NCBI GenBank assembly: GCA_963691655.1
Contig: OY829329.1
Location: 10,802,708 to 10,866,707 of the forward strand
DNA from: Toxonevra muliebris
Taxonomy: Eukaryota > Arthropoda > Insecta > Diptera > Pallopteridae
Direction of reading: 5' to 3'
DNA: 64,000 bases
Positions 17,366 through 55,014 of this stretch are shown here, piece by piece. Position numbers and translations under genes: made by a program. The notes below the pieces were generated by a model that saw nothing but the letters and a program-made list of their open reading frames with translations, did no database searches and was not told the origin of the DNA. How positions within the stretch are numbered: position 1 is the stretch's first letter; each line of letters opens with the position of its first letter.

Positions 17366-17382
17366 CACCTAAAAGTATGCAA
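17366..17382 (-). promoter_or_regulatory. Su(Hw)-like binding motif (exact core)
   Basis: Reverse complement reads TTGCATACTTTTAGGTG; matches YWGCMTACTTHY and the downstream GG half. Confidence 0.7.
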
Positions 17383-17519
17383 TTCTTGCGGTGATTTTAC
17401 AAAATGCAAAGCCAACTAAAGTGTCTACAACACTCTTGTAATATTATTTAAAGTCTGAAACAATTTTCTACTCACTAAAACCACATTTTTATTATTTATT
17501 ATTGTTTTACTGATAAATA

Positions 17520-17538
17520 GCGCCTAAAAGTCTGCAAC
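17520..17538 (-). promoter_or_regulatory. Su(Hw)-like motif, one core mismatch
   Basis: Reverse complement GTTGCAGACTTTTAGGCGC; a full-length match to the extended motif except A instead of T in the core. Confidence 0.55.
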
Positions 17539-17728
17539 ATTCTCTTATTTAATTTTAAATATTCCCTGAAATACAAAGTTTTAATTTCCGTTGCCATTCA
17601 ACCGCAGGCGGTAAGTAGAAAAAACAACAACAGCAGCAACGGCAATTGCAATAAAAATCAATCACGCGCTTAAATCATCACGTTCCGTTCGCTCAGAACA
17701 GCATGTCATTTTCGAGTGATTTAGTAAA

Positions 17729-17745
17729 GTTTACTTTTAGGCGCA
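17729..17745 (+). promoter_or_regulatory. Su(Hw)-like motif, degenerate core
   Basis: AGTTTACTTTTAGGCGC: the TACTTTTAGGCGC half is exact; GCA is replaced by GTT. Confidence 0.4.
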
Positions 17746-18719
17746 CATATTAACACACACACACACACTTGCATCATGCATGCATTGCACCATACACACG
17801 TACCTTAAACACCAACCAGAGCCAGACGATTGCAAATTTCCGCTTTTTCTTTCTATTTTTGGAAAGACGGAAGCGGAATGTTTGTGGCATGAGATTGTGT
17901 TGGTGTTAGTTTTCGGGGTAGTGGTGTTAGTTTAGTTAGTTTATTAGGCTATTATGAGAACACAAATTTTCGTGCTGCCTACTTTTAACCTTATGAGGCT
18001 GTAAATACATATACGAGTATATGTTTGAATGTATGTGAATGCATGTGTGTTTGTGCAGTAAACTGCAGTGTGAAACCAAATGTTGTCATGCTATTTTACA
18101 ATTTTCAACATTTCCGTTTAAGTTGAAGTAAATTTCTGGTTGGACATCATATGTGGTTGGTGAGTGGTGATGGTAAAATTGGAGTAGAGGAAATCATGTT
18201 GTTTGGTATGTCGATACAGGGAAATGTTGCTGTTGCAAGTTCCTGAAACTTTCAGTGTACTTTATTGAATAAAAAAAAAAAAGTTGTGAAAGATTTTCTT
18301 TATAAAGATTTATCGAACATAATTTGGGATGGTAGGATGTAAAGAGTGTTTAAATTACAATCTTTCATTGCTGCGCTGTTGTACCTTAGGAGTTTAATCA
18401 GACTTAAAAATTGTTTCCAAACTAAGTTAATTTCTACACATTTCTCGAAGGTCAATTGTAGCTAGTAAAAAATGTAACATTAGTTCAAGGAAGGAAGGCA
18501 GCAGACTTAAATGAAAAACTTGGAAAAATTAGCTTTTAATGTTGACCAAATATGGAGCAGTATCTCAGCATATTCCCTGTGAATCCGGTATAGTTTGAAG
18601 TATTGAACAGTCAGTCCAGGAAGTTTAAGGATCCCAAAACCAGAATGTTCCGTTGCAACCTTGGATTAAAGATCGAGTAGATAATTTCGATGAGCACACA
18701 AGTATTTAATATCGGTGTG

Positions 18720-23900: not shown

Positions 23901-24231
23901 TAATATATATACATGATTTGAAATAATGGATTTAATTATTAGGCATTTAATTTAACGTGAAATTATGCAAATAAGCGAACAAGAAAAAGTTAACTGTTAT
24001 ACATCAAGTAGGTAAAGTGCATAAAATTATGTTTCACCTTGGATATGTCCGTTCTTTCAAGTAGCTTTAAAAGTGAACAACAATTTGAGGTGATGAGAAA
24101 GTATTAGAGGAAAATATATTGGAAAAAATAGTTTGTGAAATGCAAAATATTCATTCCAAAGTGCATTTATACTTGGGAAAAAATATTGAAATAAAGAAAC
24201 ATCCATGGAAGACAAAAAGTCAACTACTTAC

Positions 24232-24600
24232 CTTATACTATTACTGCGATTCAAACGTGGACTTTGCACATAAGGTGACTCTGTGCCTCCAATTGTGCCG
24301 CCTGCACCTGCACTGCAACCTCCACCACCACCTCCAGCAGCTGCTGCCGCCGCCGCCGCCGCTGCCGCTACAGCTGCTGCTGCAGCATTACGATGCTGAA
24401 GTATTTTATGTCCATGCCGTGTCATGGAAGGTGAACCAATTTGTATGTTTTCCAATGTATCACCATCGGATAAACGACTGCCTGCGGTATTGCTATGCTT
24501 TAACCACATAGCATAGGTGCTGTATTCAGGTTTCACTTCGGCATAGGTTTGTGTATCGGATAATGAGCCATCAATCATTTTGCCAGGACGATTTGACATT
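24232..24600 (-). CDS. sick: sickie / NAV coding exon c with poly-Ala/poly-Gly tract
   Basis: Acceptor is a T-rich run ending GTGTTTTTAG at 24601 and donor is ATAAG|GTAAGTAG. The split codon CAT-AG|A from exon b gives Arg, so the join reads FQHR-MSNRPGKMIDG. The exon encodes SDTQTYAEVKPEYSTYAMWL, a NAV-like segment, then LSDGDTLENIQIGSPSMTRH. A run of about 17 Ala interrupted by one Val is followed by six Gly (about 24300-24390), and the exon ends SPRLNRSNSIR. The homopolymer comes from GCN/GGN codons (CCGCCGCCGCC on the plus strand) and is a likely length-polymorphic site. A 1.4-kb intron separates it from exon b and a 6.95-kb intron from exon d. Confidence 0.9.
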
Positions 24601-25998
24601 CTAAAAACACAAAAAAAAAAAACAATTAATAAAAAATTTGAGTTATTAAAGCTCAATTTCCCAATTATATTTAATTATTTTTTTTATGCATAGTCTGCGG
24701 CTTATCACATCAAAACCACAATAGCATGTATGTAAATCTATTGATATGTTAAAAATGATTACAATAAACCTTGACATTTAAATTTGTACATATATTTTAA
24801 ACAACCACAAAATGTGTTTAAGGCAATTAATTATAAAACGCGAAACAATTTGATTATGGAAATATTTTGCTGCTCTCTTTTAGGTGTGTAAATGTATAAT
24901 TGCAATATGCAATTTTAAATTATTCGTTAAGTGAGGAAATGTAAGTATTATTTTAGTAACGAGTAAGCAAGCCATAATATTTCAATTTATAACCACCAAC
25001 AACACATATAATTAATTTAATTTGAAAGCCTTAAATTATACACAAATTACCGATGGGGCTATAATAATGCTAATTAATTTAGTGCGTATACTAATTAATG
25101 CAAATGAGTTTACAATTTAATATCACTAAGTTAATGGCTATAGTAGTATGGATAAGAAAAAATTTATAAATTGAGGTATATTTTTAGGAGCTAGAAAAGT
25201 TTAAAGGTACTAAACTTTAATAAGAAATTCTTTTGAAATTAAACTTTTATTATTTTCAAAATAAGTAAACAAAATCAGAGTGAAGTAATTTTTATCTGAT
25301 AGTTTAAAAAGGTGTAAAAAAAAAACACATTATCCAGATAGGTTTGTTTTTTGTAAAATTTATCCAGATCGAGAATTTCAAACTTGAATTTTGATTTTAA
25401 ATATTTTATCCATTTAATTAGCATAAATTTAGAACAGAGATTAATGTTTCAAAGGATAGGGATAAAGCGAGAAAGGCTGCATTATCCTAACTAGGTCGAA
25501 TATTTATCCGACTTAGTGGCTCGAAAATTCTCTTTAATTTTTGCCTGATTTTGATTTCATAACATAATATTTGTTTCGGTAAGTTGCAAAAGCTTTTATC
25601 CGTTTTATCAATTTTTCATCCGAAAATCTGTAAATAAAAAAACGGGATTATCCGAATTGTTTTGAATTTTATCTCATTTATCCAAACCAAGAATTTCCAA
25701 CATAAATATTTGTTTCAACATTTTATCCATTTTTTGTTTTTAAAACAGAATCTTTATTTCGGAGAATAAAGAAGAAATGAGAAATGCAGAATTATCCGAG
25801 CTAGGCTGATATTTTTGCGACATACTGGTTCAGAAAGAATCTTTATATTTTGCCTAATGTTGCAACCTTTGATTTCCTAATATAATATTTGCTTTTGTTA
25901 AATGCAAAACCCTTTATCCGTTTTATCCATTTTATCCAAACATACAAATTTAACCAGCCACATAAACTACCAAATAATATCTCTTTCATTCAACCTAC
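24601..25998 (-). other. intron between exons b and c
   Basis: A 1.4-kb intron, GTAGGTTG to GTGTTTTTAG. Its upstream half (25.3-25.96 kb) is two diverged tandem copies of a roughly 310-bp repeat containing TTATCCGTTTTATCC words. The other half is plain AT-rich sequence. Confidence 0.85.
25320..25960. repeat. two tandem copies of a roughly 310-bp repeat
   Basis: 'TTTATCCAGATCGAGAATTT' (25360) pairs with 'TTTATCCAAACCAAGAATTT' (25677). 'ATTTATCCGACTTAGTGGCT' (25500) pairs with 'ATTTTTGCGACATACTGGTT' (25811). Offset is about 310 bases. Confidence 0.7.
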
Positions 25999-26143
25999 CT
26001 ATGCTGAAAAATATGCAAATCCGTGCCCGGTTTTGGTAGACTATGCGATCCAGTGGCCAAACGTTCCCTAATCGATTGACTTAATTGCGTAGCACCGGGA
26101 CCAGTAAGTGAGAAACTTCGACATTGTGTATTTGGTGGAATTT
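25999..26143 (-). CDS. sick: sickie / NAV coding exon b
   Basis: A 145-base exon separated from exon a by a 78-base intron, with acceptor TCTACTTTCAG and donor CATAG|GTAGG. Phase fits: one base from exon a plus two here make Lys, then 47 codons, then two bases carried forward. The peptide contains CRSFSLTGPGATQLSQSIRE followed by RLATGSHSLPKPGTDLHIFQH. This Ser/Pro-rich stretch is conserved-looking and low in simple repeats, unlike its neighbours, and I recall closely similar text in vertebrate NAV1-3. No catalytic domain is expected here. It was too short to stand out as an open reading frame and was recovered from the splice signals and phase match. Confidence 0.9.
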
Positions 26144-26221
26144 CTGAAAGTAGATAATAATTTTTGCCTACTATTAAATTTAAATATGCATACCAGCAGC
26201 AAATTTAAATGCACAACTTAC

Positions 26222-26850
26222 TTGACATATCATTAGGCAGAGTTTGAGTCCCACCCGAAACTTTACGTCCACCAGGCTGGGCAACTGCTGTTCGTGGGAC
26301 AGCAGATACATGTGCGGTACGTCCTCCACTACCACAATTATTTTGCATAATACTTCCTCCAACACCGCCACCCATCATCATAATATTTTGTTGTTCTGCT
26401 GTAGCGGTGGCACTACCATTAGCACGTTTAACATAACCAAAACTTGGTGGTACACCTTTAGTACGAGATGAGGGTGAACCTTGTTTTGAAGAGCTACCAC
26501 TATTGGTAGTTCCAGCGCCGTTGCTACCACTAACACTGCGTCTTGAATGTGATGGTGATGATTTTTCTACTTTTTCTGATTTATGCCCGTTTAATGGTTC
26601 TGGCATTTTAGTCCAATTATCACGTCCATTGCTGCGTGATGTAGAACGATGATGTGATGATGATGATGAATGATGTCCATGATGATGTCCTTGATGTTGT
26701 GGGCTTGCATTAGCGCTAGCGTTGCCAGAGCCGCTGCCGTTTGAAGCATCCATTTTATTGTTGGAACCACCGCTTGAGCTAGCTGCAGATGCTGCTGAGG
26801 AGGGAGGTGCGGTACCGATGCTATCTAGGCTTCCGCGACTATTGCGAATT
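26222..26850 (-). CDS. sick: sickie / neuron navigator (NAV) coding exon a
   Basis: Internal coding exon of the fly NAV homologue; NAV proteins are cytoskeletal regulators of axon growth, and Drosophila sickie acts in cofilin/F-actin control of mushroom-body axons and was also linked to Relish activation. Read on the minus strand, the exon follows a polypyrimidine tract ending TTTTTTACAG and stops at TCAA|GTAAGT. It enters with one base of a split codon and leaves with one. The peptide starts IRNSRGSLDSIG, passes a Ser/His-rich stretch (GHHHGHHSSSSSHH), then reaches blocks that I recognise as NAV-like: KGVPPSFGYVKRANG and TAHVSAVPRT followed by KVSGGTQTLPNDMS. The middle of NAV proteins is largely disordered and associates with microtubules, which fits this composition. 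The ATG at 26753 is internal: the frame is open back to the acceptor. Identification is from memory of the family, without a database search. Confidence 0.9.
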
Positions 26851-27030
26851 CTGTAAAAAAAGAGATAAAATGGAATTTTTATACTTTTAGTTTTGCTAAA
26901 TTGGTTAAAATTTATACATGTGAAAACTATAAAAGGTAAGTAGGAAAAGCTTTGACTTTAGTTTAAGACAGTTAGAGAATAGAAAAGGTCAAAAGATTAT
27001 ACAATTTTGTAAACAAATGTTATTCAAGTC

Positions 27031-29060: not shown

Positions 29061-30388
29061 GGTGGAAATGGTTGATGTGATTAAGAAGCGGAAAGATTTC
29101 TATATTCTCGACAGCTCTGAGAAAGAATTGAATTGGCATAACCAGAAAGGAGAAGAAAAGGGACCGAAGTCCTAACTCGAAACTAAGTACATCCTTTTCA
29201 GTTGGTTAATCCTTAGCTGTTGGTCTTTTCCGAATGATAAAATTATATAAAAAAAACTTATTTTCTATACAGAGAAATTAAATTATTCATTTACCTATCA
29301 TTGTTTTATACCCTTGCACTTTAACTTAATTAATTTCAAATGTTTTTGAGTGTTTCAAGAATAAGTAAGTATTAAGTGTGGCTCGCCATTGAACAATGGG
29401 TTAATGTCATACTTATATACAATTGTAATACTGCTCTTTGATAAAGCAAATACTTATCTTATTAAGTATATTGTATTGTTTCCTTTGAGGAAGCCCTTAA
29501 ATTTGTGTGTTTTTTTTTTTTAATTTTCTACCCCAATGAAAGGAAATTAGAGATATATCAAAATAACTCATAGAAACATACAAGGATTTAAAAGATTTCA
29601 ATTAGGATTTGCATACCAGTTCACATAAAGTAGAATTTTAATAGTTGAATTAATGGAATGGGTAACTACTTTCAAATTTGAATGAATATATTATTCTAAG
29701 AAATAAACTTTTGTGCAAAAAGCTTAAAATAAAAATGAATCTTTACAATATAACAATAGTAGTTACTATAAGTCTAGTGAAAAAGCAAATACCAAGAGAA
29801 ATACATGAATGAATGAATGCATGACTGTGTGTTTACTTCTGATAACTGCAAAATTTCAATTGAACTGTGAAAACAGAAAACTAAATAAAGGCAGTCATAT
29901 CTATTAAAGACAGACAAATATGTGAAATGATGCACAGATTGAACAGTAGCAGTAGGAATAGAGCAAATAGATAGTAAGACAGGAAACAGACAGACTTTCA
30001 AACAAACATTTAGACAGAGAGACAGACAGAAAGGCATTGCATACATAGATAGTAATGCAGCAGACAAAAGCTAATATATGTATAGCAAAAAAGTAAAAGA
30101 GTAAAATAGCAAAAATCTTCAATTATACAAAACGTTTTTGAATGAGCAAGTAGCAAGTGTTATGACAATGATACGTTGCTGTTGCTGCTACTGCTGCTTG
30201 AGATGTGAATTATAGTGTCAGCATAATTGAAAGTGATTGCAACAAATTGCAAAATTCAACAAAAGTTGAAGTAGTAAAAAAACAATAAAAAAAAAAATTA
30301 TAAAAATTCAGAAATTAAATCAATAAAGTAAATAAATTTATCAAACAAAAGTTAAAGTAGTTAGATAAGTAATTCAATTTATATATTA

Positions 30389-30406
30389 AGCCAAAAAGTA
30401 TGCAAA
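30389..30406 (-). promoter_or_regulatory. Su(Hw)-like binding motif (exact core)
   Basis: Reverse complement TTTGCATACTTTTTGGCT. It lies about 125 bases downstream, in the gene's sense, of the candidate alternative first exon. Confidence 0.6.
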
Positions 30407-30530
30407 AGATATTTTCTAAACATTTTTCAAAAGCAGCAACTCAAAAATGTTTATTCTATAATACGCCAAATTAATTTTCTAAAAAGTAATTAATTTACAT
30501 TACTAACTACAAATACTAAATAAATTTTAC

Positions 30531-30574
30531 CTGTCTCTAAATTTCTCTATATCTTTTCTCCACAAATTCAGCAT
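30531..30574 (-). CDS. sick: candidate alternative first coding exon of sickie
   Basis: Read on the minus strand, an ATG at 30574 opens 14 codons (MLNLWRKDIEKFRD) ending AG|GTAAAA. The two leftover bases (AG) joined to the single base entering exon a (A) make Arg, giving FRDR-IRNSRGSLDSIG. The phase is exactly what exon a requires. The peptide is charged and amphipathic, unlike the hydrophobic junk translations around it. No convincing polypyrimidine/AG acceptor lies just upstream, so a first exon fits better than an internal one. No core promoter is evident by eye. This is inference: a phase-compatible donor near an ATG can occur by chance. Confidence 0.4.
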
Positions 30575-30852
30575 AATATAATAAATATGCATGCATAATT
30601 TTAAGGGTTAATTGAGCGTGACATATGATTTTGCCCAGACATAATAAATAACTCAAGCGTGAAAAATAATAAATAGACTACATACAATTTACCTACAGAA
30701 AATGAAAGTAAGCAAAAAAAAAAAACGAAACGGAAAATATTGTATGTCGTATATTCTACTTAAAATAAGAAATTAAATATGCTTGTTTTGTTAAACGACC
30801 TAAATGCACGCTCAACAAAAAGAGCAACAAAAAATTTCAAATAAATTTTCAG

Positions 30853-30870
30853 TTAGCATACTTTCAAGCG
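30853..30870 (+). promoter_or_regulatory. Su(Hw)-like motif (exact core)
   Basis: TTAGCATACTTTCAAGCG; core exact, downstream half degenerate. About 280 bases upstream, in the gene's sense, of the candidate first exon. Confidence 0.5.
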
Positions 30871-31356
30871 TATTTCGAAAAAGAATAAATTGTTTGTCGA
30901 TACATATTTATTTTTACACATTTATCATTTAATGTGCTTATAGCTGAAGCTAATTAGTCTGGAAATGTTAGTCAGAAAAAAAATGAGAGCATAAATTGTA
31001 ACTGGGCTATAGCATGAGTAAGTGCAGAAAATTTCATTTCATATTTTTTGAAAAAATTATTTAAAATTAAGTTCATAATTATTCAATGTAATTATTTTGT
31101 AATTTTGGTTTTTGCTTTGTAATAGTAATTGTTGTTGCAAAAATGTCTGAAAGACTAATTTTGCAATATAAAGTTTTAAGGCAATTTTGGTGTGAGCATT
31201 TGATATAAAACAAGCAAAAATAAAATTTTTGCCTAACTTTAGGCATTTAACCAAATTTTTGAACTTTGTAGTAAAATAATGCAATTTACATATATTGTAT
31301 ATTTTTGGAATTTATTATATTGTTGGGTGAATTTCCGTAAGGAAATGTGATTAGTA

Positions 31357-31374
31357 TTGCATAGTTTTAGGTGC
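31357..31374 (+). promoter_or_regulatory. Su(Hw)-like motif, one core mismatch
   Basis: TTGCATAGTTTTAGGTGC, first copy in the tandem repeat at 31.3-32.4 kb. Confidence 0.45.
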
Positions 31375-31974
31375 AATTAAAACTTTGTAGTCTTTAATGT
31401 TTGTAAGAAGTTTGGGTAATTTTGGGTTACAAGAAATGAAGTCAAAATTACTTGAAGTGTTTATAGTTGAATGTAAATTATTTGTAATTATAGTAAAGTG
31501 GTAAAATTTGGTATGGAAAATGAAGAAATCGGACGGAATTCAAAACAAATGAGAGATACAATAGCAGATATGAGGAAACAATGAATTGAACTACGAAATA
31601 TGAACCTTTTTGAGAAACAGTAGTAGTATGAGTGTTTAGAGATAAGAGTTATGAATCGAAATCAGCTTTCTACTATTCAAGAAGTTAACATATTTGCAAG
31701 GAAACGTAAAGAGTGTTACATAGTTTATGGTGCTTTTAATGCAAGATGGGGGATTTTAAACAAATTTATGTTGCAAAAGCTGAAGTATAAGTAACAAAAT
31801 GTTGGGCTATTTCATATGCAGTCGAAGTATGAGTTTGAGTTTAGAACTAGGAGGTTCGAATCGGAATAAGTTTTCTACTATTTGAAAAGTTGGAATTGCC
31901 AATTTTCATACACTGCATATTTTTATAGTTTATTATTTTCCTGGGGACATAGTTGCAAGGTAATGTAAGGAGTG

Positions 31975-31990
31975 TAGCATAATTTTAGGA
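31975..31990 (+). promoter_or_regulatory. Su(Hw)-like motif, one core mismatch
   Basis: TAGCATAATTTTAGGA, third repeat unit. Confidence 0.4.
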
Positions 31991-32214
31991 ACTATTTAAA
32001 TTTTGTAATTATTTTCTTTTGAACATAATTCTGGGTTCGAAAACTTGAAATCACAACTATGGTATGAAATATTAGCCTGTTTTAGATGCAGTCGAAGGAT
32101 GAGGGTTTAGAGATATGTAGAAGCTATGAATCGGAATCTGTTTTCTACTGTACTAGAAGATGGAATCACCAATTTGTACACATCGTATATGTTCGGAGTT
32201 TATTATTTTGATCA

Positions 32215-32232
32215 CTGCATATTTTTAGGTGC
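32215..32232 (+). promoter_or_regulatory. Su(Hw)-like motif, one core mismatch
   Basis: CTGCATATTTTTAGGTGC, fourth repeat unit. Confidence 0.45.
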
Positions 32233-32852
32233 TATTTATATTCCATAAAGGGATGCTGCAGAGTTGGAGCAATTTTGGATTGTTGCAAGAATCGAAGTCA
32301 AAGTTTAAAAATATTAGGCTCTTTTAAATGCAGTGGAAGGTAAGTATATACAAGTGAGAACTATGAATCGGAATAAGCTTTCTTTTTTTTCTAGAAGTTG
32401 AGCTCCTGGAAATAAAATACTGAGAGTACATTACAACTCAGTAGAATATCTAAGGTGTGTAATAGAAGAGCTTGATTATCATGAAAAGAAAGCAAAATAT
32501 TTGATCACACATTGTAAAATAAATAAATTAATTTTCTGTTCTGCAACTACCTGCTTCTGTATATACTAATGATGCATTTATAATAATTTTTATTGCATAC
32601 TTATCAATGCAAAAATTATATACCAACTCTAAAGTTAATATAAACTTAAAAATTAAAACTTTTTGCAAAAAAGAAAATTCAATAAACAAACCACTTCAAG
32701 TATTTCTTCACCTATTTCTGTGCTTTTTACCTAAACTCTTCCCTTCCCTTCCCTTTTTTCATGCTGTGCTGAGTTTTTATGTTAAACATTACTTATACTG
32801 GTAACCATAGGCTTCTGTTTCCCTTTAGCTGCTTCCCTTTTATTAAATTAAA

Positions 32853-32869
32853 TTCCTAAAAGTATGCTA
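32853..32869 (-). promoter_or_regulatory. Su(Hw)-like binding motif (exact core)
   Basis: Reverse complement TAGCATACTTTTAGGAA. An additional bare core, TTGCATACTTATC, is at 32593. Confidence 0.65.
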
Positions 32870-33485
32870 TGCGAAACTTTTCTTTATTTTGTTTTTCTTT
32901 TTTCTTTTCTTCGTTATTTGTTCTTGCCTTCCCTTTTTTTGAGTTAAATTTATAATATTAATTTAATCTTGTGCTGTGTGTCTGCTGCTATAAATAATTT
33001 TTTTTTTTTTGCTTCTTTTCTCGCTTTTTTTTCTTTTACTTGTACATTTTTTATAACCAAGTTGTTTTTGATTTGATTTTAATACATATTTTTCCAGTTT
33101 ACAAGATAAGCGCGCAAGCCGCTTTTATTTATTTCAACTTATTTGTTTGTAGTCTGCTTTTAGGTGCGAGGAAAAGCGAGAAGAAGTTGTAGCATTATAA
33201 TGTTAATACAGTAAAAACATTAGATTCAATTGAAACGCATTTTATGCTTTGTATTATCCAAAGCTAATAAGGATTAAAAAAGAATTGCCGACTTTATCAG
33301 AAAGACTAAACGAATTATTATATATATTTGTGGAATCTTTTAGGCGCATTTCTAATTTACTTCAAGTGCCAAAATTATAAATCACACGAATTTCGCTTAA
33401 TGTATTTAAGTTTTTTGTAATTGCCAGACATATTAAAATGTTACAACAGGAAAACACTTCTAAGCGGAATTTCCCTCTTTTTCTA

Positions 33486-33504
33486 CACACCTAAAAGTAT
33501 GCAT
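33486..33504 (-). promoter_or_regulatory. Su(Hw)-like binding motif (exact core)
   Basis: Reverse complement ATGCATACTTTTAGGTGTG. Half-matches TTTTAGGTGCG (33158) and TTTTAGGCGC (33338) lie within 340 bases. Confidence 0.65.
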
Positions 33505-34481
33505 TTCGAAAATTTATAGGTAAAGTGATTTAATGCTTTATTGAGCGTAAGCTCAGACACGCTAACTTCGTTTCCTCTTTGTGTTTATTTCTTTATAGTC
33601 TACCATCAAAGAAACAGAAGCAGAAACAGAAATAAAGAATAAATTTTATTTGTGAAAATAGGCCTCTAGGGTAAAACGCAGAACAATTGATATTTTTCTT
33701 CTTTTTTTTTTTGCTTTTTTCGCTGTGCTGAGTTGAGCGTAAAATTTATAAAAAAAAGAAGAAAAATAGTGGAAAGAAAAGTAAAAAGGTTTCAATAAAA
33801 TACAATTACAGTTATGAGTTTGTCGATAAGAAAACGTAGTCTCTTTAAAAAGGGTATAAAAAAGCGAAGAAATAGAAAAGGGGTTGTACACAAAAGAAGT
33901 AAGCTCATGTTGTGGTAAGGTAAACCAAACATACCTGAATTTAAATGGTGATATAACAAAATATAATAAAAAAAAGCATTTGTACATTTGTATTGTTTGG
34001 TTTATTGGGCAATGTGTTGAAATTGAAAGGGAAGACCGCTTTATACCATAAAAGTCTTATGACGAGCGAGAAGGAGACCCATAAGTGACACATAAAAATA
34101 ATAAATTGTTGCTTTATTTTTTTTAAGTGAAAATCAATAGATCGTTATTGTTTTTAAGTGTGTTTCTTGTAAGTGTTTTAAGCAAAAGTGTATGAATATA
34201 AGAAATGAAAATCAATGAAATAGTTAGCTCAGATATGTCTCTTTGTCAATATTTGTATGTAGTTGGATGTAGAGAAAGGCTGTCATTATGATTGAAGGTA
34301 ATTTCTGTACTCAAGAGGTAAAAGGTAAATGAATTATTCAATGATATGGAGTGTAAATTTAATTTGAAAAATTCATTGACATTTCAATAGTATAGAGGTA
34401 ATTAATTTAATTGCTTAATATATTAATAATAAATTTAAATATTTAATATGTAGAAAACATGGTGAACTAATTATTTATTGG

Positions 34482-34497
34482 TTCCTAAAAGTATGTG
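34482..34497 (-). promoter_or_regulatory. Su(Hw)-like motif, one core mismatch
   Basis: Reverse complement CACATACTTTTAGGAA. Confidence 0.45.
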
Positions 34498-34823
34498 GAC
34501 ATTTAAAAAAAATTTATATTTCTTTTATTTTGATTCATATATAAGAAAAAATTAATGAACTTCCAGTTTCAATGTCCAGACCCCTCCCTCTCTCTTCTCC
34601 CCTTGCGTGCGACTTTATCAGTGATCCAAATTTAAATTTTCAAAGAAAATCAACAAAAACTTAAAAATATGAGAAATTATGTTTGAGTAAATATTTTTTC
34701 CACAGTATACCAGTATTCAAAGTTGGACATATTTGGGCAAAAATTTTAAAAATCAGATCGAATTTCTTGCTCTGATTGCTTTTGCCATCAAATTTCAGCT
34801 CAAAACTTTTATCACGTTTTATT

Positions 34824-34839
34824 TACATACTTTTAGGAT
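34824..34839 (+). promoter_or_regulatory. Su(Hw)-like motif, one core mismatch
   Basis: TACATACTTTTAGGAT. Confidence 0.45.
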
Positions 34840-34994
34840 TAAATAAATTGTATTAAAATAATAATATCATTTATTTTCATTCACAAATGTGCTGCTATAT
34901 TATAATTTTTCTCAATTCTGAAAGCCTTTACATATAAACTACCATGACGGGAAAATTTCATTCAGTCATTTAAACCCGTTATATTTAATATCAA

Positions 34995-35012
34995 CGCACA
35001 AAAGTATGCTAA
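34995..35012 (-). promoter_or_regulatory. Su(Hw)-like binding motif (exact core)
   Basis: Reverse complement TTAGCATACTTTTGTGCG. Confidence 0.6.
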
Positions 35013-35895
35013 AGTATGAACAATTGTTTGCTTTTATTAAACAAAAAAACCCACGAGCAGAAAAAAGGTGTGAATTGTATGCATGCATTTTTTTTCATTG
35101 TATAGAAACTGTCAAAATGACATTGTCGCACACACACACACACATACATATCTACACTCTTTATCCTGTACATATGTTTATAATGCTATCACTTTCGTTA
35201 CGGAATTAATATAAAGTGAGTTTCATTAAACAAGAAAGAAGAAAAAAAAAACAGAAGCGTAGGAGAACAACGAATAGGCGAAACAATGACCAAACAAAGC
35301 AATGAAACGTAGGCAAATGAGATATAAAATGGAACACACTCACGCACACAAGTAAGAGTTGCTCTGACATAAAACAGGATGTGTGTATATGTTATAAATG
35401 TCGTTGATGGTTGATGATAGTAGGAAGGTAGATAGGTATAATCAAAAAAGGGTTTCCTGTTTTACTTTTACTTGCTTTTGGTTCGCATGTTGCATGCATC
35501 TAAAAAGTATATGAAAAGAAGCAGCAATGAAATAAAATAGCGTAGTAGGGAAAGAACTATGCAAGTATGTGGCAGATATGTTTAACATAAATATAACAGA
35601 GCAGTAGCGTTGACATTTTCATACAATTACATTTAAATAAACACAACAGTGGGGAAAGAAATAAAGAAAGAGCGAGAGAGTTAGGTAGACATGTGACATT
35701 TTATTGCGTTGACAGGTTTAAATGGAGAGAAAACAAGCTAAATTAGTTAATGGATATAATGCATGACAGATTGATGAGATATTAGAGAATTAAATTGTAA
35801 AGGTAAATAATTATTTTCTTGTTTTACACATGGGTAAAACTAAAACGAAAGAAATTTAACTAAATTAAAATTAAAAAAAAAAAAACTTTAAAATA

Positions 35896-35912
35896 TTTGC
35901 GTACTTTTGTGC
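35896..35912 (+). promoter_or_regulatory. Su(Hw)-like motif, one core mismatch
   Basis: TTTGCGTACTTTTGTGC. Confidence 0.45.
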
Positions 35913-36107: not shown

Positions 36108-37134
36108 ATAAATTTTTGTTGCTGTTGAGTGTTGAGCGTCATGCAATTGAACATTTGTATTCTCTAATGTGTGTATAAAATGCCAAATTCAATGCATGTT
36201 AACACACACAAACACAAACAAAAGCACCTCGGGTGCAATTTCGCAAATGAAAATTTGTATTTTTCAACTAATTGTGCATATGTATTGCTAACATACGTAA
36301 ACACAAAAATACATATTTATGCATAATTAAGTATACATTGAAAACAATATTATTATTTAATGAACGTTTTTGTTTAGTTAAATTCATTTATATTTTGAAT
36401 GTATGTTGCATTTTAAATTCTTCAGCAAAATAAACTTAACAAAAAAAAAAAATATTAGTTACTACTACTTTAATTTATGTACTTTTGACATGAAAATGAG
36501 TGTATAATGTGCATGAAGAACGTGTATATACTACTAAATTGTATATGTGTTTGTGGAAATACAACAAAGCGTATTGACCCTGCGGGTGTTTTACTTAAAT
36601 TACCCTTGAAAAACAAAACAGAACATGCACACACATACACGAAAAAGTGAAGTACACACACGCACACATGCAGGTATTCATATGCTTATGAGTAGATATG
36701 TTTGTTTTTGATTGGCATAGCCAGTACATACATATGTTTAAAGGCATATAATTTACCAACTACTTTGTGTGTTTCAGTGTATTCATAAATGAAAAAAGCA
36801 TCGACACAAAAAGCCTTTTTAATGTAAACAAACAAAGAGCAGGACATTTTTTTTAGTAGTTTTTTTTTTAATGGATTTTTCGGTCTCTTTTGTGTCATTG
36901 AAGTAGAAAGTTTTTGTAATTTGATTACAAAACAGAAATGCATTGAAAACTCGTCGGATTTAAGATTAATGCAATCAGTCACCCTCAAAATAGTAATAGT
37001 TGCACGGATCTATGTTTTTTAAACCCAGGCACTTATCCCTCACGGAATTATTTAATCTTTTAGGTTCTGTTCTGGTTCAACAGAGCGGTAAAATTTTAAG
37101 TAGCAGTTCAAGAACCACCACAAGTATCAGTAAA

Positions 37135-37935: not shown

Positions 37936-38042
37936 AATTCTAGCTATTTCTTTTAAAAAAATGTGCTAAAACCGCTGTGACCTCTTTGGCACCTCTTTCT
38001 ATCTTTAATCTGAAGTAATAAACAAAACATAGTTTTTAATAA

Positions 38043-38060
38043 CACCTAAAACTATGCAAA
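38043..38060 (-). promoter_or_regulatory. Su(Hw)-like motif, one core mismatch
   Basis: Reverse complement TTTGCATAGTTTTAGGTG. Confidence 0.45.
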
Positions 38061-41385: not shown

Positions 41386-42456
41386 ATAGTGGATTCATTT
41401 TAGATGAACCAGTAAGATGTTGAGAAAGGGATCAAACAAAAATGGCGATAACTTCGTCTCTAATTAATTTTTTTTTTAATTTTGTCAAGTAAAGATAAAA
41501 CATATTATAATAACTCTGTATTGATAGTAATTGGAAATTACTGTCGAAAAAAAAAAAATTATTTTAAATACTGAATTTTTCACACTTCTAACTGGACCTA
41601 GCTCCTTAAGTCAGAATAGATTTACATTACACAGAACAGGTTTAATGAGGAATTTTGCATTATCGATGATAGAGTTGAAAATTAAAAAAAAAAAAACTGT
41701 GACCCTAAAAGTAATGGTCAATCAAGCACAGTGCCAGTAAACTATTGAAGAGCTATGGATGATGTCAATGTCCATACCTGTTTCGCAGAATAACTAAACA
41801 CTCTTTGAATAACACGACCGACCAGAAAATCCCTAGTACAATTCGATTTGATTATTACTGTATTTTTTTTATGCAAAATAATCTACATGCACCTACAATT
41901 TCTTGACACAGTGTAAGCAGTTTTTTATTTTATTTTTTGCGTCTAAACTCAATGAAAGTTTCACCACAACTAATATTATAAGTTATCGTATTTCTATAGA
42001 AATGAAGCTGCAATAATTGTGTATAAGCTATCGCCATAATGTCGCAGAAATTTATTAACAAGCAGTACTCAACGTTTTTCCTATCGCAGTCGGGACATTT
42101 TTTACTCATGTCGTGTGCGCAATATGATCTCATATTGAATTTCACTCAGTAAATGTTTTCTGTTCTACTGAAATTAATTTCAGTTCATTTTCAGAGCAAT
42201 TGACCAAGTTTTTGTGTTCTCCTCAGAATCAGCTCTACAAATTACAAGTGTCCTATGAAATCCTCAATAAATAAATATAAAAAAAAATATACAAGACATG
42301 CTGCTCTCCTACCCCTCCCTCTTCTTATTTTTTTTCTTTCCATACCTACGCATGTAATTTTGTCATAGAAAAGCTTGCATTAAACTTGAGTATACCAAAC
42401 AATCTTCAACAGGGAAAACTCTCAACTCTAAGACATTCAACTTAAATTCGTAATTC

Positions 42457-42475
42457 TTTGCATACTTTTAGACAC
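42457..42475 (+). promoter_or_regulatory. Su(Hw)-like binding motif (exact core)
   Basis: TTTGCATACTTTTAGACAC. Confidence 0.65.
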
Positions 42476-43578
42476 TAGAAACTTTTCTCATAGCATTTTA
42501 ATTAAATGACAAAAAAAAAAAAAAGAAAAAAAAAATTACCCTCCATTCCTCTCCCTTTCATTGTCGATTTATAACAACTTTCCTCTTCATTAACCGTCAT
42601 TAAAAATCCTCACATACCAAAGCATACATAAAATATACCCAAAAATTTTCCACCGAAAATATATGCGACTTAGAAGTTTTTTTTTTTCACCAACATACAC
42701 ACTAACAAACCAAAAACACAACAGCAATTAAACTTCATTAAAGTGCAATGAACTTTTGCCGTCCCACCATCAAAACAACAACAAGCAGAGTATAGGTATC
42801 CTTACTATTTTACACAGTACCTCCTTACTATTTAAAATAAGGTGGCAATACTCTTCACTTGGGCACTTATACCCTATATTCAATACAGAGAAGACGGGGA
42901 GGATAAAGAAGAGAACGACTATTTTATTTAATAGCACATACAAACAAATACACATGTACATACATACAAACATATACAGAAATATACACAGACAAGCAAA
43001 GCACAACCAAAGAGGCTCATTAAATTTTCCTATACTCATTTAAGGTGTACTATGTCTGTAGTATCTGTAGAATATTCAGTAAGTAAGTAAGGCGCACTTA
43101 ATTTAATGTTAAGCTGATGTTATGCTTCTTCTTTTTATTTTGCTATTCATTTGTTAATACATGCATACATACATACATAAGTAAGTGTATGAGAGCAGGA
43201 AATTGAGGAGTGAGATATAAGAGAAGACAATCCAGGATATGAGGGATATAAAACTTTAGCCTGATAATATTATGTAGTAGAATTTATTAAGACAATTGAG
43301 AAACTGACTGCTGACTATAGCAGTGCGAAATTGTTTACCTCAATTTCAAATAGCTTTTTCCAACAGGCATACAAAATACACACACCCAGGCATATGTATA
43401 GATGTGTGTGTGTAACATATGTGTCTGAGTGTCTGTTTTTTTGTTTTTGTGTATATTGTGCTATATAAGTGTTTGTTGTTGTTGTAGCAACTAAAAATAG
43501 GCGGCGGCAGCTAGTAAAATTTCAACGAACGAAAGTGTAAAAAAAACAAGGAAGAAACATTGATTTTACAATATGATT

Positions 43579-43595
43579 AAGCATACTTTTAGGCG
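43579..43595 (+). promoter_or_regulatory. Su(Hw)-like binding motif (exact core)
   Basis: AAGCATACTTTTAGGCG; core and downstream half both exact. Confidence 0.7.
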
Positions 43596-43985
43596 AGAAC
43601 TTTCCTTCTCAAATACATTGAGTGAGTGTGAGTGGATTTAAATACAAAAAAAAAAATAAAAATAAAAACTAGGATACTGCTGCTATCCTCTTTCAGCATA
43701 TCATGCTTTCATGTGTGAGTTCGTTATAAATTAGGTTATGGCAGTAATAAAAAAAAATACAACCCGAGCTACCCAGCTACTGCAGTGTTGGGGTAATTTT
43801 CTCTTTAATTTTACTACATAAATAGGTTAACAGTTTAGCGCAGTGTGTGTCTATTAGTTTCACTTCATTCATTTATTGTCTTGCATGATTTTTGTAATAA
43901 AATGAAATGGAATTTAATTTACAATACATAAAAGTTTTCATAAAAAATATTGAAATATATTTACGCTTATTCAACAGAGTAGGCA

Positions 43986-46940: not shown

Positions 46941-47272
46941 ACCCTAAAACTTCACATTTATTATAATCGAACTATTTTTGTAATCAGTTTCACTGTAGAA
47001 AGATTTTAAAAGGTCATAGTTAAACGTTCATATTTTTGAAAGGGGCTGCAGTCCCCACAATCCTTCCCTTCTCACAATCCACCACAAATCGCTGTATATG
47101 TGTTTCATAAATCATGCCCATAAATATTTATTGTAATTGGCTATTCGGTTTCGGTTTATCGCTTTGTTTTCTTGTTGATGAACTGTCATGTCTATAAAAA
47201 ATCAATATAATTTATATGCTACCTATCACTAATAAAACAAAAAGCTAGTCACATATGTATTTATGTATAATG

Positions 47273-47290
47273 TTAGCATGCTTTTAGGAT
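47273..47290 (+). promoter_or_regulatory. Su(Hw)-like motif, one core mismatch
   Basis: TTAGCATGCTTTTAGGAT, same variant as at 21809. Confidence 0.5.
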
Positions 47291-47639
47291 GATAATCATA
47301 ATGGTTTGCATGTCTAATAAATATTTTACTATTTAAATACTAGAAGATTGCACCTATAAATTAAATGTTAAAAAGACGAAAACGACTTTGATTAATATAA
47401 GTCTAAGAAATAAAAAGTTAATGTTTGAAGAATGGAAGAGAATGATGAAACCAAGGAAAATATTTCAAAATTTAGTGTTTTTCGCAAAAGTCAGAGTTTT
47501 TCAGCACATGGATAGCGAATATCAGAATGAGATAGGTGAATGGAAATAGATATTGCAGGTATATTTCACAGCGATTAACCCTTTCAAGCACACATATCTC
47601 TAATAATTGTTTTTTTTATCTAATGGACATATTTTAAAG

Positions 47640-48144: not shown

Positions 48145-49386
48145 ATGAATTTTTATTCTAGGTGGGATATACGTCTTCCCACCGTGCTGCAAAGGGTTAA
48201 TGGATCTATTTTATCTCCAATAGCAGCTTCATCATTAGCTTTGGAAGAAAAAAAGATATGTTCTGTTGTCTTCCTTGATGTTTCCCAAGCCTTCGATAAG
48301 GTATGGCAAGAAGTCCTTCTGAAAAAAGTGCAAAATAAATTGCCAAATGCTTACGTTAATATCCTGCGAACATATTTAACTGAGAGATATTTTCGAATTA
48401 AACAAGAAGATTGTTATTCTGATTTAAAGCCAATTAAAGCAGGAGTGCCTCAAGGCAGTGTCCTAGGTCCTCAATTATACTTGTTATACACTTGCGATCT
48501 CCCCACTGATGAGAATTATACAACAGCAACATTCGCTGATGATACTGCATTGATAGCAGTTGAAAATACAGAAGCAGAGTCAACAAGTATTCTACAAACA
48601 GCAGTAACAAACGTATCTTCTGGGACAAAGAAATGTCGACTTCTTAAATATAAATGCACAGCACCTTCCCGTGAATATTGACGGCAATGTAATACCACAC
48701 TCAAATACTGCAAACTATTTAGGTATGACACTCGATGCAAAGCTTCGCTGGAATGCTCATATTAAAAAGAAAAAGGAGGAACTTGAACTAAAATTTAAAA
48801 GCATCTACTGGCTAATTGGCAGGAAATCTGTCTTATCAATTCATAATAAACTCATGATTTGCAAACAAATCTTAAAGCCGATTTGGCTCTACGGAATTCA
48901 ACTTTGGGGTTGTGCAAGTAACGCACAAATCCTGATTATCCAAAGATTCCAAAATAAGGTATTGAGATGCAAAACCAATGCTCCCTTAGTACGTGCGAAA
49001 CTCTGATCTGCATCGTAATTTGAACATCAAAATGGTCAAAGATGAAATTCAACTAGTTGCTAAATCACACGAAATGAGACTAAGAACTCACATAAATGAA
49101 GAGGCAGCCGTACTTGTAAATACGGAAAACCTGTATCGAAGATTGAAAAGATTGAAACCTTGTGATCTAACAAGATAATCCCAACACCATCTAATTGGTA
49201 AATTTAATTATATTAATTTAACTGAAAATTGCTAGATAGTTAATGAATTGAACTAGTTGCAATTGTAATTGAAAATTTTTGGATTGTATGACTTTGGCAT
49301 AATAATTTTGTTATTTTCTATTAATTGCATTATATTTTGTAAAATTCTTATAAAATAAAAAATTCGAAATAAAAAAAAAAAAAAAA
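48145..49386 (+). pseudogene. 5'-truncated Jockey-type non-LTR retrotransposon with poly(A) tail
   Basis: RT fragment open from 48145: FLDVSQAFDKVWQEVLLKK, IKAGVPQGSVLGPQLYLLYT and TFADDTALIA (catalytic FADD, about 48530). A frameshift near 48630-48670 leads to ANYLGMTLDAKLRWNAHIKK, ILKPIWLYGIQLWGCASNAQ, IIQRFQNKVLRC. A second shift near 48995 leads to LHRNLNIKMVKDEI and a C-terminus LKRLKPCDLTR with a stop at 49178. The order and motifs are those of the Jockey clade RT and thumb. After a 190-base 3' UTR with AATAAA-like words it ends in a 16-base A run. ORF1, endonuclease and RT N-terminus are missing (5' truncation); only two frameshifts suggest a fairly young copy. No clear target duplication seen. 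Confidence 0.87.
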
Positions 49387-51894: not shown

Positions 51895-51908
51895 GATAAG
51901 TATGCTAT
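51895..51908 (-). promoter_or_regulatory. Su(Hw)-like motif (exact core only)
   Basis: Reverse complement contains AGCATACTTATC. A weaker extended match, GGTATGATTTTAGGCGC, is nearby at 51707. Confidence 0.4.
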
Positions 51909-53244
51909 ATAAAAATGTACTAATTTTTGATTTAGTATAGCCGGAGGTATACGAAGAAATAATCAGGGAAGAAATATTCAGAAATGAAAGAAATAATCAA
52001 GGGAAAATCCTACACAATCATGAAAAATATTTTGTACAATAATAAGGTAACTAAAATTAAGTTTATCTCATTAAAATTGCATGGATTTAAAGAAAAGAAT
52101 AACACGCAAATGTTAAAGTATTGAAAAGCATGTAAAGAATAATTCATATTGATAAATTTTCTGATAGTCAGGCTAGTAATAAGACTCTGTCAGCTTTGAT
52201 AGTAAATTTTGGGTTATTCAAGGTTGACATTATTTTGTGGACTTGACTCCCACAATAAAATAACTTTTCAATAAGTTTTTGTTTTTTTTTTTTGTTGTAT
52301 TACGACGGATTTGAAGGCAAAGAGACAGCACGTGAATTACTCACTTCTGACTCTCATTCTAAATTTTGACCGGATCAAAGACCTCATATGGTATAAATTC
52401 GTATTTGGTAAGGTCTTTGATTAGTAAAAATAGAAACAAGAATAGAAATAATTGCAAAAAATATTGCAATCAGGTTTTCTTCTCAATCTATTTTTATGAT
52501 CCGTGCCCTTGAATTATAAACTTTATTTTAAAGAGAGGGAAAATACTTAATCACACCCCTTTCCATCTTCTTCAATCTTTACATTCAGGTCTATGACAGA
52601 TAAAGTCCCAAAATCTTCAAACGTGGTCGTTATTACTGAATTATGGATTTTTTAAACAACTAGCGAACAAATTGAATAACATCCCACTCCCTTTTCTCAA
52701 CTTCCGAGAGATTTCCGGAGGAGGGGTCTTCATTTCTTCTGCAATTTTTTTTCTTGATTAGTAAAAAATGATCAAAATGTATGAGTTTTTCCTCAGTAAA
52801 AGACCCGCCTCACCCCTTGAATTTGCTAGTGATGCAGATAATCTATCAAGTCCACTAGCAGATCGATCCAGAGATGACCTACAAAGAGGCTTTTAATATG
52901 TTTAAAAGCCTCTTTAAAATTAAAATTGGATCATGAGCTACAATCAAAATATATGAGATTTTCATTGGTAAGAAATGAATGAGGTTTTATCCTCGTACCT
53001 ACAAACCCCCAGTTCCCCGCCCCGCCCCCCCCCCCCCTGGTCACAAAAAAACCAAAAGCAATAAAAGCGCCGATGAATTAGCGATGCGAGATTCAACTCT
53101 GGATTTAACTCAGGCGCCATCTGAAGCAATGAAAGAATGAAAATACCCTTGCAGATAGCAGATGAAAAAGCCTTTCTACATGCGACGTAACTCAGGAAAT
53201 TTGGCAAAAATTCAACCATAGCAGAACTAGGGACCTTCTTTCTC

Positions 53245-53630
53245 ACTCACTCGATCTGATAAAGCTAGATTGACTGCAGCACTGGCGGGACATTGGGCAT
53301 TAGAGAACCATGAGACCAGACTCCGCATCCCACACAACACACATTGCAGAAGCTGCAGAAGAAAGAGAGACTCTAACCCACTTTCTCTGTCATTGCTCGG
53401 CTCTTGCTAGGACCAGACTAAAATTATTCCACAAACCTTTTCTAGATGACATAACCAAGATCTCCAAACTCGAAACTACTCCAAATTTCTTAATCTTACG
53501 AAACTGGCGCTAGACAAAAAACAGCAAACACCCATTAACAAATGAGGTTGTGTTATCAAAACGGCGCTCTAGCGCTAACTGTGAGACAGTAGCCATTCTA
53601 CCTACCTACCTACCAACCCCCCTCTCTCCC
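53245..53630 (+). pseudogene. LINE C-terminal zinc-tail fragment and 3' UTR
   Basis: Contains AAEERETLTHFLCHCSALAR followed by TRLKLFHKPFLDDITK, the H/C-rich tail seen at the C-terminus of the RNase H-type LINE remnants elsewhere in the window. It is followed by TGTTATCAAAACGGCGCTCT and a CTACCTACCTACC tail. The first paired cysteines are missing. No RT or RNase H precedes it, so it is strongly 5'-truncated. Confidence 0.65.
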
Positions 53631-54404
53631 CTTGATCTGCTCTCAGATTTATAACAGATCAAGTCTCAAAACCATTATAATCCTCATTTTTGAATTATAG
53701 ACTTTTTGAAGTAAAGAAAGAATTTAATCACTCCCCGTCTCTCCTTCCACAATCTTTCAGATCCGCAATATATTGCGATAATTTTTTTAGTTCTGTACCA
53801 CAAAATACATCAAAACCTTCTAGACTTTTTGGAAAAACAAAAGATAGAGTTTTTAGAATAAACCCTTAAAACCCTTAAATGACTGCGACTTCAAGTATAA
53901 TGTAAAGTCATGTGAGTGATTGTGACTTATTTACCTTTAAGTCTCAAATTGATTGCTATAATCAATGAGCAGTCATTGACTTCAAAAAGACTGGTAACTT
54001 AATTTTTTAAAGTCATAAGTCTCAAATGAAATGAAAGACTGTAATCATAAAACGCAATTCAATTGCAGTGACTTCAATGAATGCAGCTCGAAATGACTGC
54101 AATCTTTTACAGCTCTACTGGATAAATATCACAGCTTTCATGATGGCCACACTCTTGAATTGCAAATTTTTTGATAGATGGACGAAAAAACTCAATCTTT
54201 AGTCTTGGTTTTGGTTGGGATAAACTTTCAGGCCTATACCATTAAAAATCGATTTTGATTTTCTGAGTTTTTAGAAAAAGAAAGATCTTAATAACATCCG
54301 ATCTTTTTTTCCGCAACTTTTAAATCCGTAAATAACTGGCATAGTCTTTCTGGTCCACACCAGAAAAAACACCAAAACTCTTAGTCAAAGTCCTTGTAAG
54401 TTTC

Positions 54405-54505
54405 TCTAATTTCCCTCCGAAAGGGCCTCGACAGCAGCAGAATAAACATAGATAGAGCCTCGTCAGCAGCAGGATAAACATAGATAGAGCCTCGTCAGAA
54501 ACTAG
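54405..54505 (+). repeat. short tandem duplication, unit about 37 bp
   Basis: GCCTCGACAGCAGCAGAATA + AACATAGATAGA, two copies and a partial third. Confidence 0.8.
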
Positions 54506-54996
54506 GCAATTCTAGGGACAAAATTTCAGGACGTTTTATCGAACGTGTGTTTGTAATTGGAAATATTTAATATACTTTTCATGACAATTTTTATTATTAT
54601 TTTAATGCTCAAGCACTATGATCTGAAAGATTTTTGTGCCAAATCGCTATTAGGATAAATAAAATTAATGCTTAATACTATTCTAATGAAGATGATCTGA
54701 TTATATTGGTCAAAAAGAACTCCAAAGTGATTTTTATTCTTATGGGTTTCTTATACCATCCACAGCTTTTGAATATATTTTTTTGATTTTTTTCTGGACA
54801 TGTACTGACAATAAATGCACTACCCACTAAAGCGTTTTCAGGTAAACTAACTTCTCACTATAATCCTTAGTGGTGGTCTATTAAATTGACAAGTTCATGT
54901 TGTTTGGTCAAAACCTAAGCATGACAAAGTTCGCTCTCTGAAAATTTATGTTACTGATTTGAAATTGTAATCTTCTCTCCTATTGAATAAAAATAA

Positions 54997-55014
54997 CACC
55001 TAAAATTATGCAAA
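54997..55014 (-). promoter_or_regulatory. Su(Hw)-like motif, one core mismatch
   Basis: Reverse complement TTTGCATAATTTTAGGTG; the last clear copy. I found none from here to 64000. Confidence 0.45.

What the first reader, a model, noticed from the sequence alone, without database searches (positions are those of the whole stretch)
17366..55014. Distributed cluster of Su(Hw)-type insulator/silencer motifs through the sickie introns
One motif, TTGCATACTTTTAGGCGC or its complement, recurs in both orientations. I count about 14 exact GCATACTT cores and about 15 one- or two-mismatch copies with the TTTTAGG(C/T)GC half. Five copies keep the 13-mer GCATACTTTTAGG. By hand, assuming about 32% GC, a random 64-kb sequence should give about 2-3 cores and far fewer than one 13-mer. 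The motif equals the known Su(Hw) consensus YWGCMTACTTHY plus its downstream GGC half. Copies lie between tandem repeats and transposons and are not a gypsy-type 12-site block. In Drosophila Su(Hw) represses neuronal genes in the ovary, and sickie is a neuronal gene. A spread array of this density inside one gene, possibly acting as a long-range silencer or looping platform, is not something I know to be described.
Basis: partly seen in the sequence, partly recalled or inferred. Interest (0 to 1): 0.93.

Follow-up and report, generated by a model that had tools for sequence, protein, structure and literature searches.

The report
Insulator-protein binding sites crowding fly sickie
Introns of the neuronal gene sickie in an unnamed fly carry about twenty DNA sites matching the binding sequence of the insulator protein Su(Hw); the crowding is real, but it belongs to larger site-rich stretches of one chromosome rather than to this gene alone.

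Summary
The motif cluster is real: 14 exact GCATACTT and 5 GCATACTTTTAGG, and 22 hits at 12 bits or more to a matrix from the published Drosophila Su(Hw) consensus, against 2 for the reversed matrix and 1.5 in simulation. The gene is sickie; none of the 22 overlaps the four mapped window exons. No second genomic copy of clusters A (17.3-18.0 kb) or B (21.8-23.1 kb) was found. The genome encodes a Su(Hw) ortholog with conserved core-reading fingers, and the 13-mer occurs 2833 times, 15 reversed.

A sickie-specific silencer is not supported. The left 100 kb is near background, and strong sites concentrate in three 0.8-2.9 Mb domains of the same chromosome, one holding the window, with gypsy-like arrays elsewhere in two of them. 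Best reading: genuine Su(Hw) sites acting as multi-site insulator and pairing elements of a Su(Hw)-rich domain; occupancy and function untested. Side find: su(Hw) has at least five partial paralog copies within 62 kb; the three aligned have altered core fingers.

The parts
16069..16088 (-). Leftmost matrix hit, TGTTGCATAATATTAGGCTT (15.6 bits)
17365..17992 (.). Cluster A: four Su(Hw)-type sites (17365-, 17520-, 17725+, 17973+), about 80-700 bp upstream of a sickie exon
   Evidence: matrix hits; 17520 is 1 mismatch from TTGCATACTTTTAGGCGC; only its own place matched in the genome
21806..23158 (.). Cluster B: six sites of 12 bits or more (21806+, 21920+, 22056+, 22327+, 22739-, 23139-) plus the core at 22942+
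   Evidence: only its own place matched in the genome; no tandem duplication seen, one weak 63% inverted match
30388..36108 (.). Cluster C: seven sites of 12 bits or more (30388-, 31355+, 31973+, 33148+, 34994-, 35895+, 36089-) plus cores at 30856+, 32595+, 32860-, 33495-
   Evidence: genome copy number not obtained
31282..32431 (+). Decayed tandem array (63-70% between units) carrying three sites in one orientation (31355, 31973, and 32215 which is below 12 bits)
42456..42475 (+). Isolated site CTTTGCATACTTTTAGACAC (12.2 bits)
43577..43596 (+). Isolated site TTAAGCATACTTTTAGGCGA, contains the 13-mer
47272..47291 (+). Weak site (13.3 bits)
48577..48596 (-). Matrix hit inside a LINE reverse-transcriptase reading frame; probably spurious
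38042..38059 (-). Weak site, 3 mismatches from the 18-mer
51898..51905 (-). Exact 8-base core without the downstream half
54996..55013 (-).
16629..17282 (-). sickie exon as aligned by tblastn (acceptor near 17282; a donor near 16921 would make it shorter)
24231..24602 (-). sickie exon
26055..26144 (-). sickie exon (30 aa aligned)
26205..26957 (-). open reading frame with relatives at up to 67% identity, probably sickie coding; exact exon ends not set

Best explanation
The motifs are genuine binding sites for this fly's Su(Hw). About twenty lie in the introns of sickie, grouped in clusters of four to seven within 0.6-1.4 kb or spread over 6 kb. They form one edge of a megabase-scale, Su(Hw)-site-rich domain. 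Most likely each cluster recruits several Su(Hw) molecules with partners such as CP190 and Mod(mdg4), and so forms a strong insulator and pairing element that contacts other clusters of the domain and organises silent, lamina-type chromatin in which a neuronal gene sits. Shown here: site enrichment, match to the published consensus, non-repeat context of clusters A and B, an ortholog with conserved core fingers, domain-scale clustering. Inferred: occupancy, partners (not looked for in this genome), looping, chromatin state, any effect on sickie.
For: Consensus identity. Window 22 vs 2 reversed at 12 bits or more. Genome: 13-mer 2833 vs 15; 18-mer with up to 2 mismatches 1915 vs 11. Among 76 one-mismatch sites on C1, changes avoid the GCATA core (3 vs 21.1 expected) and pile up at the last three bases (39 of 76), as a protein-read motif would. 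Similarity between site regions is mostly confined to the motif or to short stretches; no second copy of clusters A and B was found. Ortholog at C2:8.692-8.696 Mb with 12 fingers (counted by eye) and a C-terminal region alike to Drosophila; 62% identical over 364 aa to Eupeodes Su(Hw), reading helices of fingers 6-9 nearly unchanged. Domain clustering: 240 strong sites, C4 has 91 vs 40 expected; C4:9.1-11.75 Mb 18 vs 1.3. The GGTT variant shows no such clustering in its first 100 of 326 places, all on C1: no gap under 1 kb, at most 4 per Mb. Literature: four reiterated three-module sites block enhancers as well as gypsy (PMC5825117 passages); Su(Hw) binds at multiple sites within lamina-associated domains, placed by sequence; shared Su(Hw) sites promote boundary pairing (abstract of PMC13405320).
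Against: No occupancy, chromatin or contact data. One of the four lists (32 sites) has none in C4:9.1-11.75 Mb. Only one of the 240 strong sites is in the window itself. Eight of nine pairs under 1 kb are on C4; of the three C4 places with such pairs that were fetched, two proved tandem duplicates (L036, L038), so part of the C4 excess is mutational. Given the local density, spacing inside the array is near uniform: 12 of 21 gaps under 1 kb, 10.3 expected. The C of TAC, described as highly conserved in Drosophila (position 10), is not so here: 7 of 76 single mismatches, 4.2 expected if even. Domain boundaries were drawn after seeing the lists.
Confidence: 0.55

Rival explanations
1. Gene-specific silencer: the intronic Su(Hw) array evolved to shut off sickie outside neurons, for example in the ovary.
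For: sickie identity; Su(Hw) represses neuronal genes in Drosophila ovary; cluster A lies just upstream of an exon.
Against: Site-rich domains extend over megabases and stronger ones lie elsewhere; in Drosophila repression is reported for promoter sites; no promoter was mapped at clusters A or B.
Confidence: 0.12
2. Bound but mostly neutral: Su(Hw) sites arise easily in this AT-rich genome and by local tandem duplication, and persist without function of their own.
For: Tandem-duplicated arrays (L036 89%, L038 87%, window 31.28-32.43 kb 63-70%); 6 matrix hits vs 0 reversed in four other 10-kb stretches.
Against: About 190-fold excess of the 13-mer over its reversed control, though at least 326 copies are a repeat-type variant; position-specific mismatch profile; clusters A and B show no duplication.
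Confidence: 0.2
3. The motif is the conserved part of a dispersed repeat, not a set of protein sites.
For: L001 and L003, 2 of 8 fetched genomic 13-mers, share a 75% repeat; the variant TTGCATACTTTTAGGGTT has 326 copies.
Against: That variant is absent from the window and both flanks; no second copy of clusters A and B; flanks of most window sites are unrelated.
Confidence: 0.04
4. A different zinc-finger protein, for instance one of the su(Hw)-like paralogs, reads these sites.
For: At least five paralog copies near su(Hw), one with a clean spliced frame.
Against: In the three aligned, fingers 6-9, the core readers in Drosophila, have changed helices, while the ortholog keeps them.
Confidence: 0.08

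Closest known systems
Endogenous Su(Hw) binding sites of D. melanogaster (Adryan et al. 2007, PMC2374998; passages and section 10 read)
   Same: Same 18-20 bp consensus; intronic or intergenic, none in coding sequence.
   Different: There most sites are single (40 of 41 enriched fragments; six pairs under 1 kb in 3 Mb); here clusters of 4-7 within 0.6-1.4 kb. Thresholds differ between the two studies.
gypsy retrovirus insulator (12 reiterated Su(Hw) sites; as described in PMC6441048 and PMC5825117, passages read)
   Same: Reiterated sites in AT-rich DNA, most alike in L036, L037 and L038 on C4.
   Different: Window clusters A and B have mixed orientation and wider spacing; no second genomic copy found, no sign of a retroelement; several sites carry the downstream GC-rich half.
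Su(Hw)-bound lamina-associated domains (PMC2991331; passages read)
   Same: Multiple Su(Hw) sites within a domain, distribution set by sequence.
   Different: Lamina contact not measured here; the domains here are 0.8-2.9 Mb and the three strongest are on one chromosome.
Su(Hw)-mediated promoter repression of neural genes in ovary (PMC6441048; passages read)
   Same: Neuronal gene with Su(Hw) sites.
   Different: Sites are intronic, not at a mapped promoter; repression untested.
Pairing of eve boundaries through shared Su(Hw) sites (PMC13405320; abstract and section list read)
   Same: Shared Su(Hw) sites as a basis for contact.
   Different: A single Su(Hw) site per boundary there; multi-site clusters here; no contact data.

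Membership tests
Su(Hw) binding sites | Match to the in vivo consensus over core and downstream GC-rich half, above chance | tested here: met
   22 vs 2 reversed and 1.5 simulated; consensus
Su(Hw) binding sites | A Su(Hw) protein with conserved core-reading fingers is encoded | tested here: met
   finger-to-module map; helices compared by eye
Su(Hw) binding sites | Occupancy by Su(Hw) in vivo | not testable with these tools
   no ChIP data for this fly
gypsy-type insulator | At least four reiterated sites close together | tested here: met
   Cluster A 4 sites in 628 bp; cluster B 6 matrix sites in 1.35 kb
gypsy-type insulator | Carried by a gypsy retroelement | tested here: not met
   Clusters A and B each match only themselves in the genome search
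gypsy-type insulator | Enhancer-blocking activity | not testable with these tools
   needs transgenes
Su(Hw) ovarian silencer of neuronal genes | Sites at the promoter of the repressed gene | tested here: inconclusive
   Sites are intronic; sickie promoters were not mapped
Su(Hw) ovarian silencer of neuronal genes | Derepression on loss of Su(Hw) | not testable with these tools
   none
Lamina-associated Su(Hw) domain | Multiple Su(Hw) sites within a domain | tested here: met
Lamina-associated Su(Hw) domain | Contact with nuclear lamina, low expression | not testable with these tools
   no DamID or RNA data

The most novel reading that the evidence does not exclude
In this fly lineage the Su(Hw) system has expanded on both sides: su(Hw) became a local family of at least six copies in about 62 kb, with paralogs whose core-reading fingers changed, while target sites multiplied, partly by tandem duplication, into gypsy-like endogenous arrays packed in three domains of one chromosome, one of them at sickie. 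This would be a chromosome-specific, multi-site insulator landscape unlike the mostly single-site landscape of Drosophila, possibly in conflict with a dispersed repeat family that carries the same core.
Probability: 0.2. Interest if true: 0.75.

Novelty: new variant of a known kind. Interest (0 to 1): 0.5.

Why it matters
To my knowledge (recalled) Su(Hw) is studied almost only in Drosophila, where endogenous sites are mostly single and the gypsy array looks like an exception. A fly whose genome carries natural multi-site clusters, domain-scale site enrichment on one chromosome and several su(Hw) copies would allow a direct test of whether site number sets insulator strength in the genome, and how an architectural protein and its sites co-evolve.

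Tried and rejected
Rejected: repeat origin of clusters A and B; the genome search skips simple repeats and very common words, so this says that no second copy was found. Rejected: a uniform genome-wide density, since the left 100 kb is near background and strong sites are clumped. Rejected: the sickie window as the most extreme place in the genome; a rough negative-binomial estimate gives about 1-10 of 7678 64-kb tiles with five or more 13-mers. Not counted as evidence of selection: identical sites in diverged duplicate units of L036 and L038, because those pairs were found by exact site match.

Led nowhere: Pfam on the sickie exons (no families for them); paper search for suppressor of hairy-wing with sickie (0 papers) and for hairy-wing with long introns and binding sites (0); su(Hw) paralogs or duplication (170 papers hold 4 of 5 terms; among the 15 listed titles and abstract starts I saw none reporting them); on other insects gave listings only, of which passages of PMC5094011 were read; two papers not held; PDB search on part of the ortholog fingers gave other zinc-finger proteins. 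Genome copy number of cluster C, a whole-genome count of GCATACTTTT and the 3' end of sickie were not obtained. No cross-species DNA comparison was possible: the tool holds no relatives of this genome.
Full report
Observation. The window is 64 kb of C4 (10,802,708-10,866,707) of an unnamed 491-Mb genome in 96 contigs. I scored the window and 100 kb on each side with a matrix made from the consensus of Adryan et al. 2007, TGT(TA)GC(AC)TACTTTT(GAC)GG(CG)(GT)(CG), read in passages of PMC2374998. The column weights (0.88 shared by the allowed bases) are my choice; the published matrix was not available. At 12 bits or more the window has 22 hits, the reversed matrix 2, Markov simulations 1.48 on average (maximum 5 in 60). 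The left flank has 5 vs 1 and the right 7 vs 2, each in 100 kb. The window exceeds its reversed control and the simulation mean at each of the seven thresholds from 8 to 20 bits.

Gene. An open frame at 78,637-80,451 (window coordinates, in the right flank) matches proteins named sickie: Lucilia cuprina 58%, Scaptodrosophila lebanonensis (sickie-like) 55%; the best match is an unnamed Ceratitis capitata product at 60%. Ten such proteins were mapped. Nine reach only the exons at 78.5-85.2 kb. One, an uncharacterised Anopheles atroparvus protein, runs collinearly on the minus strand from 85.2 kb through 80, 79, 26.1 and 24.6 to 17.3-16.6 kb, so the assignment of the window exons to sickie rests on that protein. 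None of the 22 sites overlaps the four window exons tested. The identities suggest a cyclorrhaphan fly, probably not a Drosophila (inference). The 3' end of the gene was not located, so the left flank may still contain sickie introns.

Repeat or not. Regions of 420 bp around 32 window positions and 6 right-flank positions were compared with 264 kb of local sequence, eight genomic sites and four other 10-kb stretches; matches are mostly confined to the motif or to short stretches, except in a decayed tandem array at 31.28-32.43 kb. Cluster A (751 bp) and cluster B (1501 bp) each match only themselves in the genome search; that search skips very common words. Cluster C did not complete. Genome-wide the picture is mixed: 2 of 8 fetched 13-mer sites share a 75% repeat, and the variant they carry, TTGCATACTTTTAGGGTT, has 326 copies, 11.5% of the 2833 13-mers. 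Its first 100 places, all on C1, are dispersed (at most 4 per Mb, no gap under 1 kb), and its core 16-mer is absent from the window and flanks.

Genome-wide excess. The 13-mer occurs 2833 times against 15 for the reversed word. TTGCATACTTTTAGGCGC with up to two mismatches occurs 1915 times against 11. Among the 76 single-mismatch copies on C1, changes are rare in GCATA (3 vs 21.1 expected) and frequent at the last three positions (39 of 76), chi-square 85 on 17 degrees of freedom. This is the profile of a protein-read motif, with one departure from Drosophila: the C of TAC changes in 7 of 76. For comparison, Drosophila has 2,986 SU(HW) DamID peaks.

Where the strong sites lie. Four whole-genome lists, each listed in full (70, 65, 32 and 86 places, 240 after merging), are far from uniform. 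C4 has 91 against 40 expected, C1 64 against 86, C2 46 against 54, C3 38 against 45, C5 1 against 10. Three C4 domains stand out: 4.1-7.0 Mb (24 vs 1.4), 9.1-11.75 Mb (18 vs 1.3), 26.1-26.9 Mb (11 vs 0.4). The window lies in the second, and its site at C4:10,820,072 starts the second densest non-overlapping 1-Mb stretch (12). The densest 64 kb is at C4:6.34 Mb (7); the window has 1 of the 240. These domains were drawn after the lists were seen. One list has no site in the second domain, and tandem duplicates raise the C4 counts (8 of 9 pairs under 1 kb are on C4). On the looser 13-mer the window is extreme: 5, against a maximum of 3 in any 64 kb of C1:0-29.4 Mb, with about 1-10 such tiles expected in the genome by a rough fit.

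Arrays. Small pieces of C4 show what some close pairs are. L036 has three GCATACTT cores in 351 bp, two of them in an 89% duplicate; L037 has four in 901 bp; L038 has three matrix sites in 651 bp, two of them in an 87% duplicate. All matrix hits of 8 bits or more are on one strand, in 75-77% AT DNA. Other stretches also show neighbours: of four 10-kb stretches at round coordinates one has three good sites in 3.5 kb and the others one hit each (6 vs 0 reversed in 40 kb), and the eight 13-mer loci have 4 extra hits in 24 kb against 0.56 expected. So clustering is a trait of this genome, not of sickie alone. [quoted passage not shown]

The reader protein. Using Drosophila Su(Hw) recalled from memory, the genome shows an ortholog at C2:8,691,818-8,695,983 with N-terminal part, 12 fingers (counted by eye) and a C-terminal region alike to Drosophila. 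Its finger region is 62% identical over 364 aa to the protein named suppressor of hairy wing of Eupeodes corollae and 71% over 191 aa to a partial Teleopsis one. The helices of fingers 6-9, which bind the central module in Drosophila, are nearly the same. Within about 62 kb lie at least five more su(Hw)-like copies; two were not fetched. One, paralog A, splices in my model to a clean 435-aa frame ending within finger 10 at a donor-like site; further exons were not found. By eye, fingers 2-3 are kept and fingers 4-9 changed at contact positions in the three aligned. Whether any is expressed is unknown.

Mechanism. Four reiterated three-module sites block enhancers as well as gypsy in transgenes, so clusters A and B reach that number of sites, though not all their sites have three clear modules. 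I take them to be Su(Hw)-bound insulator and pairing elements in a Su(Hw)-rich, probably lamina-type domain. Binding, pairing and chromatin state are inferences. A sickie-specific silencer is possible but less supported.

Noticed in passing
G000 C2:8,634,436-8,695,983 (L034, L035): su(Hw) ortholog with at least five su(Hw)-like copies within about 62 kb; core-reading fingers changed in the three aligned; paralog A has a clean 435-aa spliced frame without complete fingers 10-12.
   Followed up: partly
G000 C4 (91 of 240 strong sites) and C5 (1 of 240): Strong Su(Hw) sites are 2.3 times over-represented on C4 and nearly absent from C5; the reason, for example a sex chromosome, is unknown.
   Followed up: no
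L001, L003; pattern TTGCATACTTTTAGGGTT: A dispersed repeat (75% between the two copies compared) carries the Su(Hw) core; 326 exact copies of the 18-mer genome-wide.
   Followed up: partly
L036, L037, L038 (C4:11.507, 6.373, 11.168 Mb): Same-orientation Su(Hw)-site arrays in AT-rich DNA, in L036 and L038 partly tandem duplications.
   Followed up: partly
window 37138-37936: Tandem ACCAAT hexamer, 133 copies, 98% matches.
   Followed up: no
window 40657-41148, 48130-48681, 10437-10880, 7228-7689: Fragments of non-LTR retrotransposons (reverse transcriptase, RNase H, zf-RVT; all but 48130-48681 below Pfam's curated cut-offs) in or beside sickie introns.
   Followed up: no
window 44085-46869 and 47649-47978: Degenerate short-period tandem repeats and a 116-bp tandem repeat with relatives in the flanks.
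   Followed up: no
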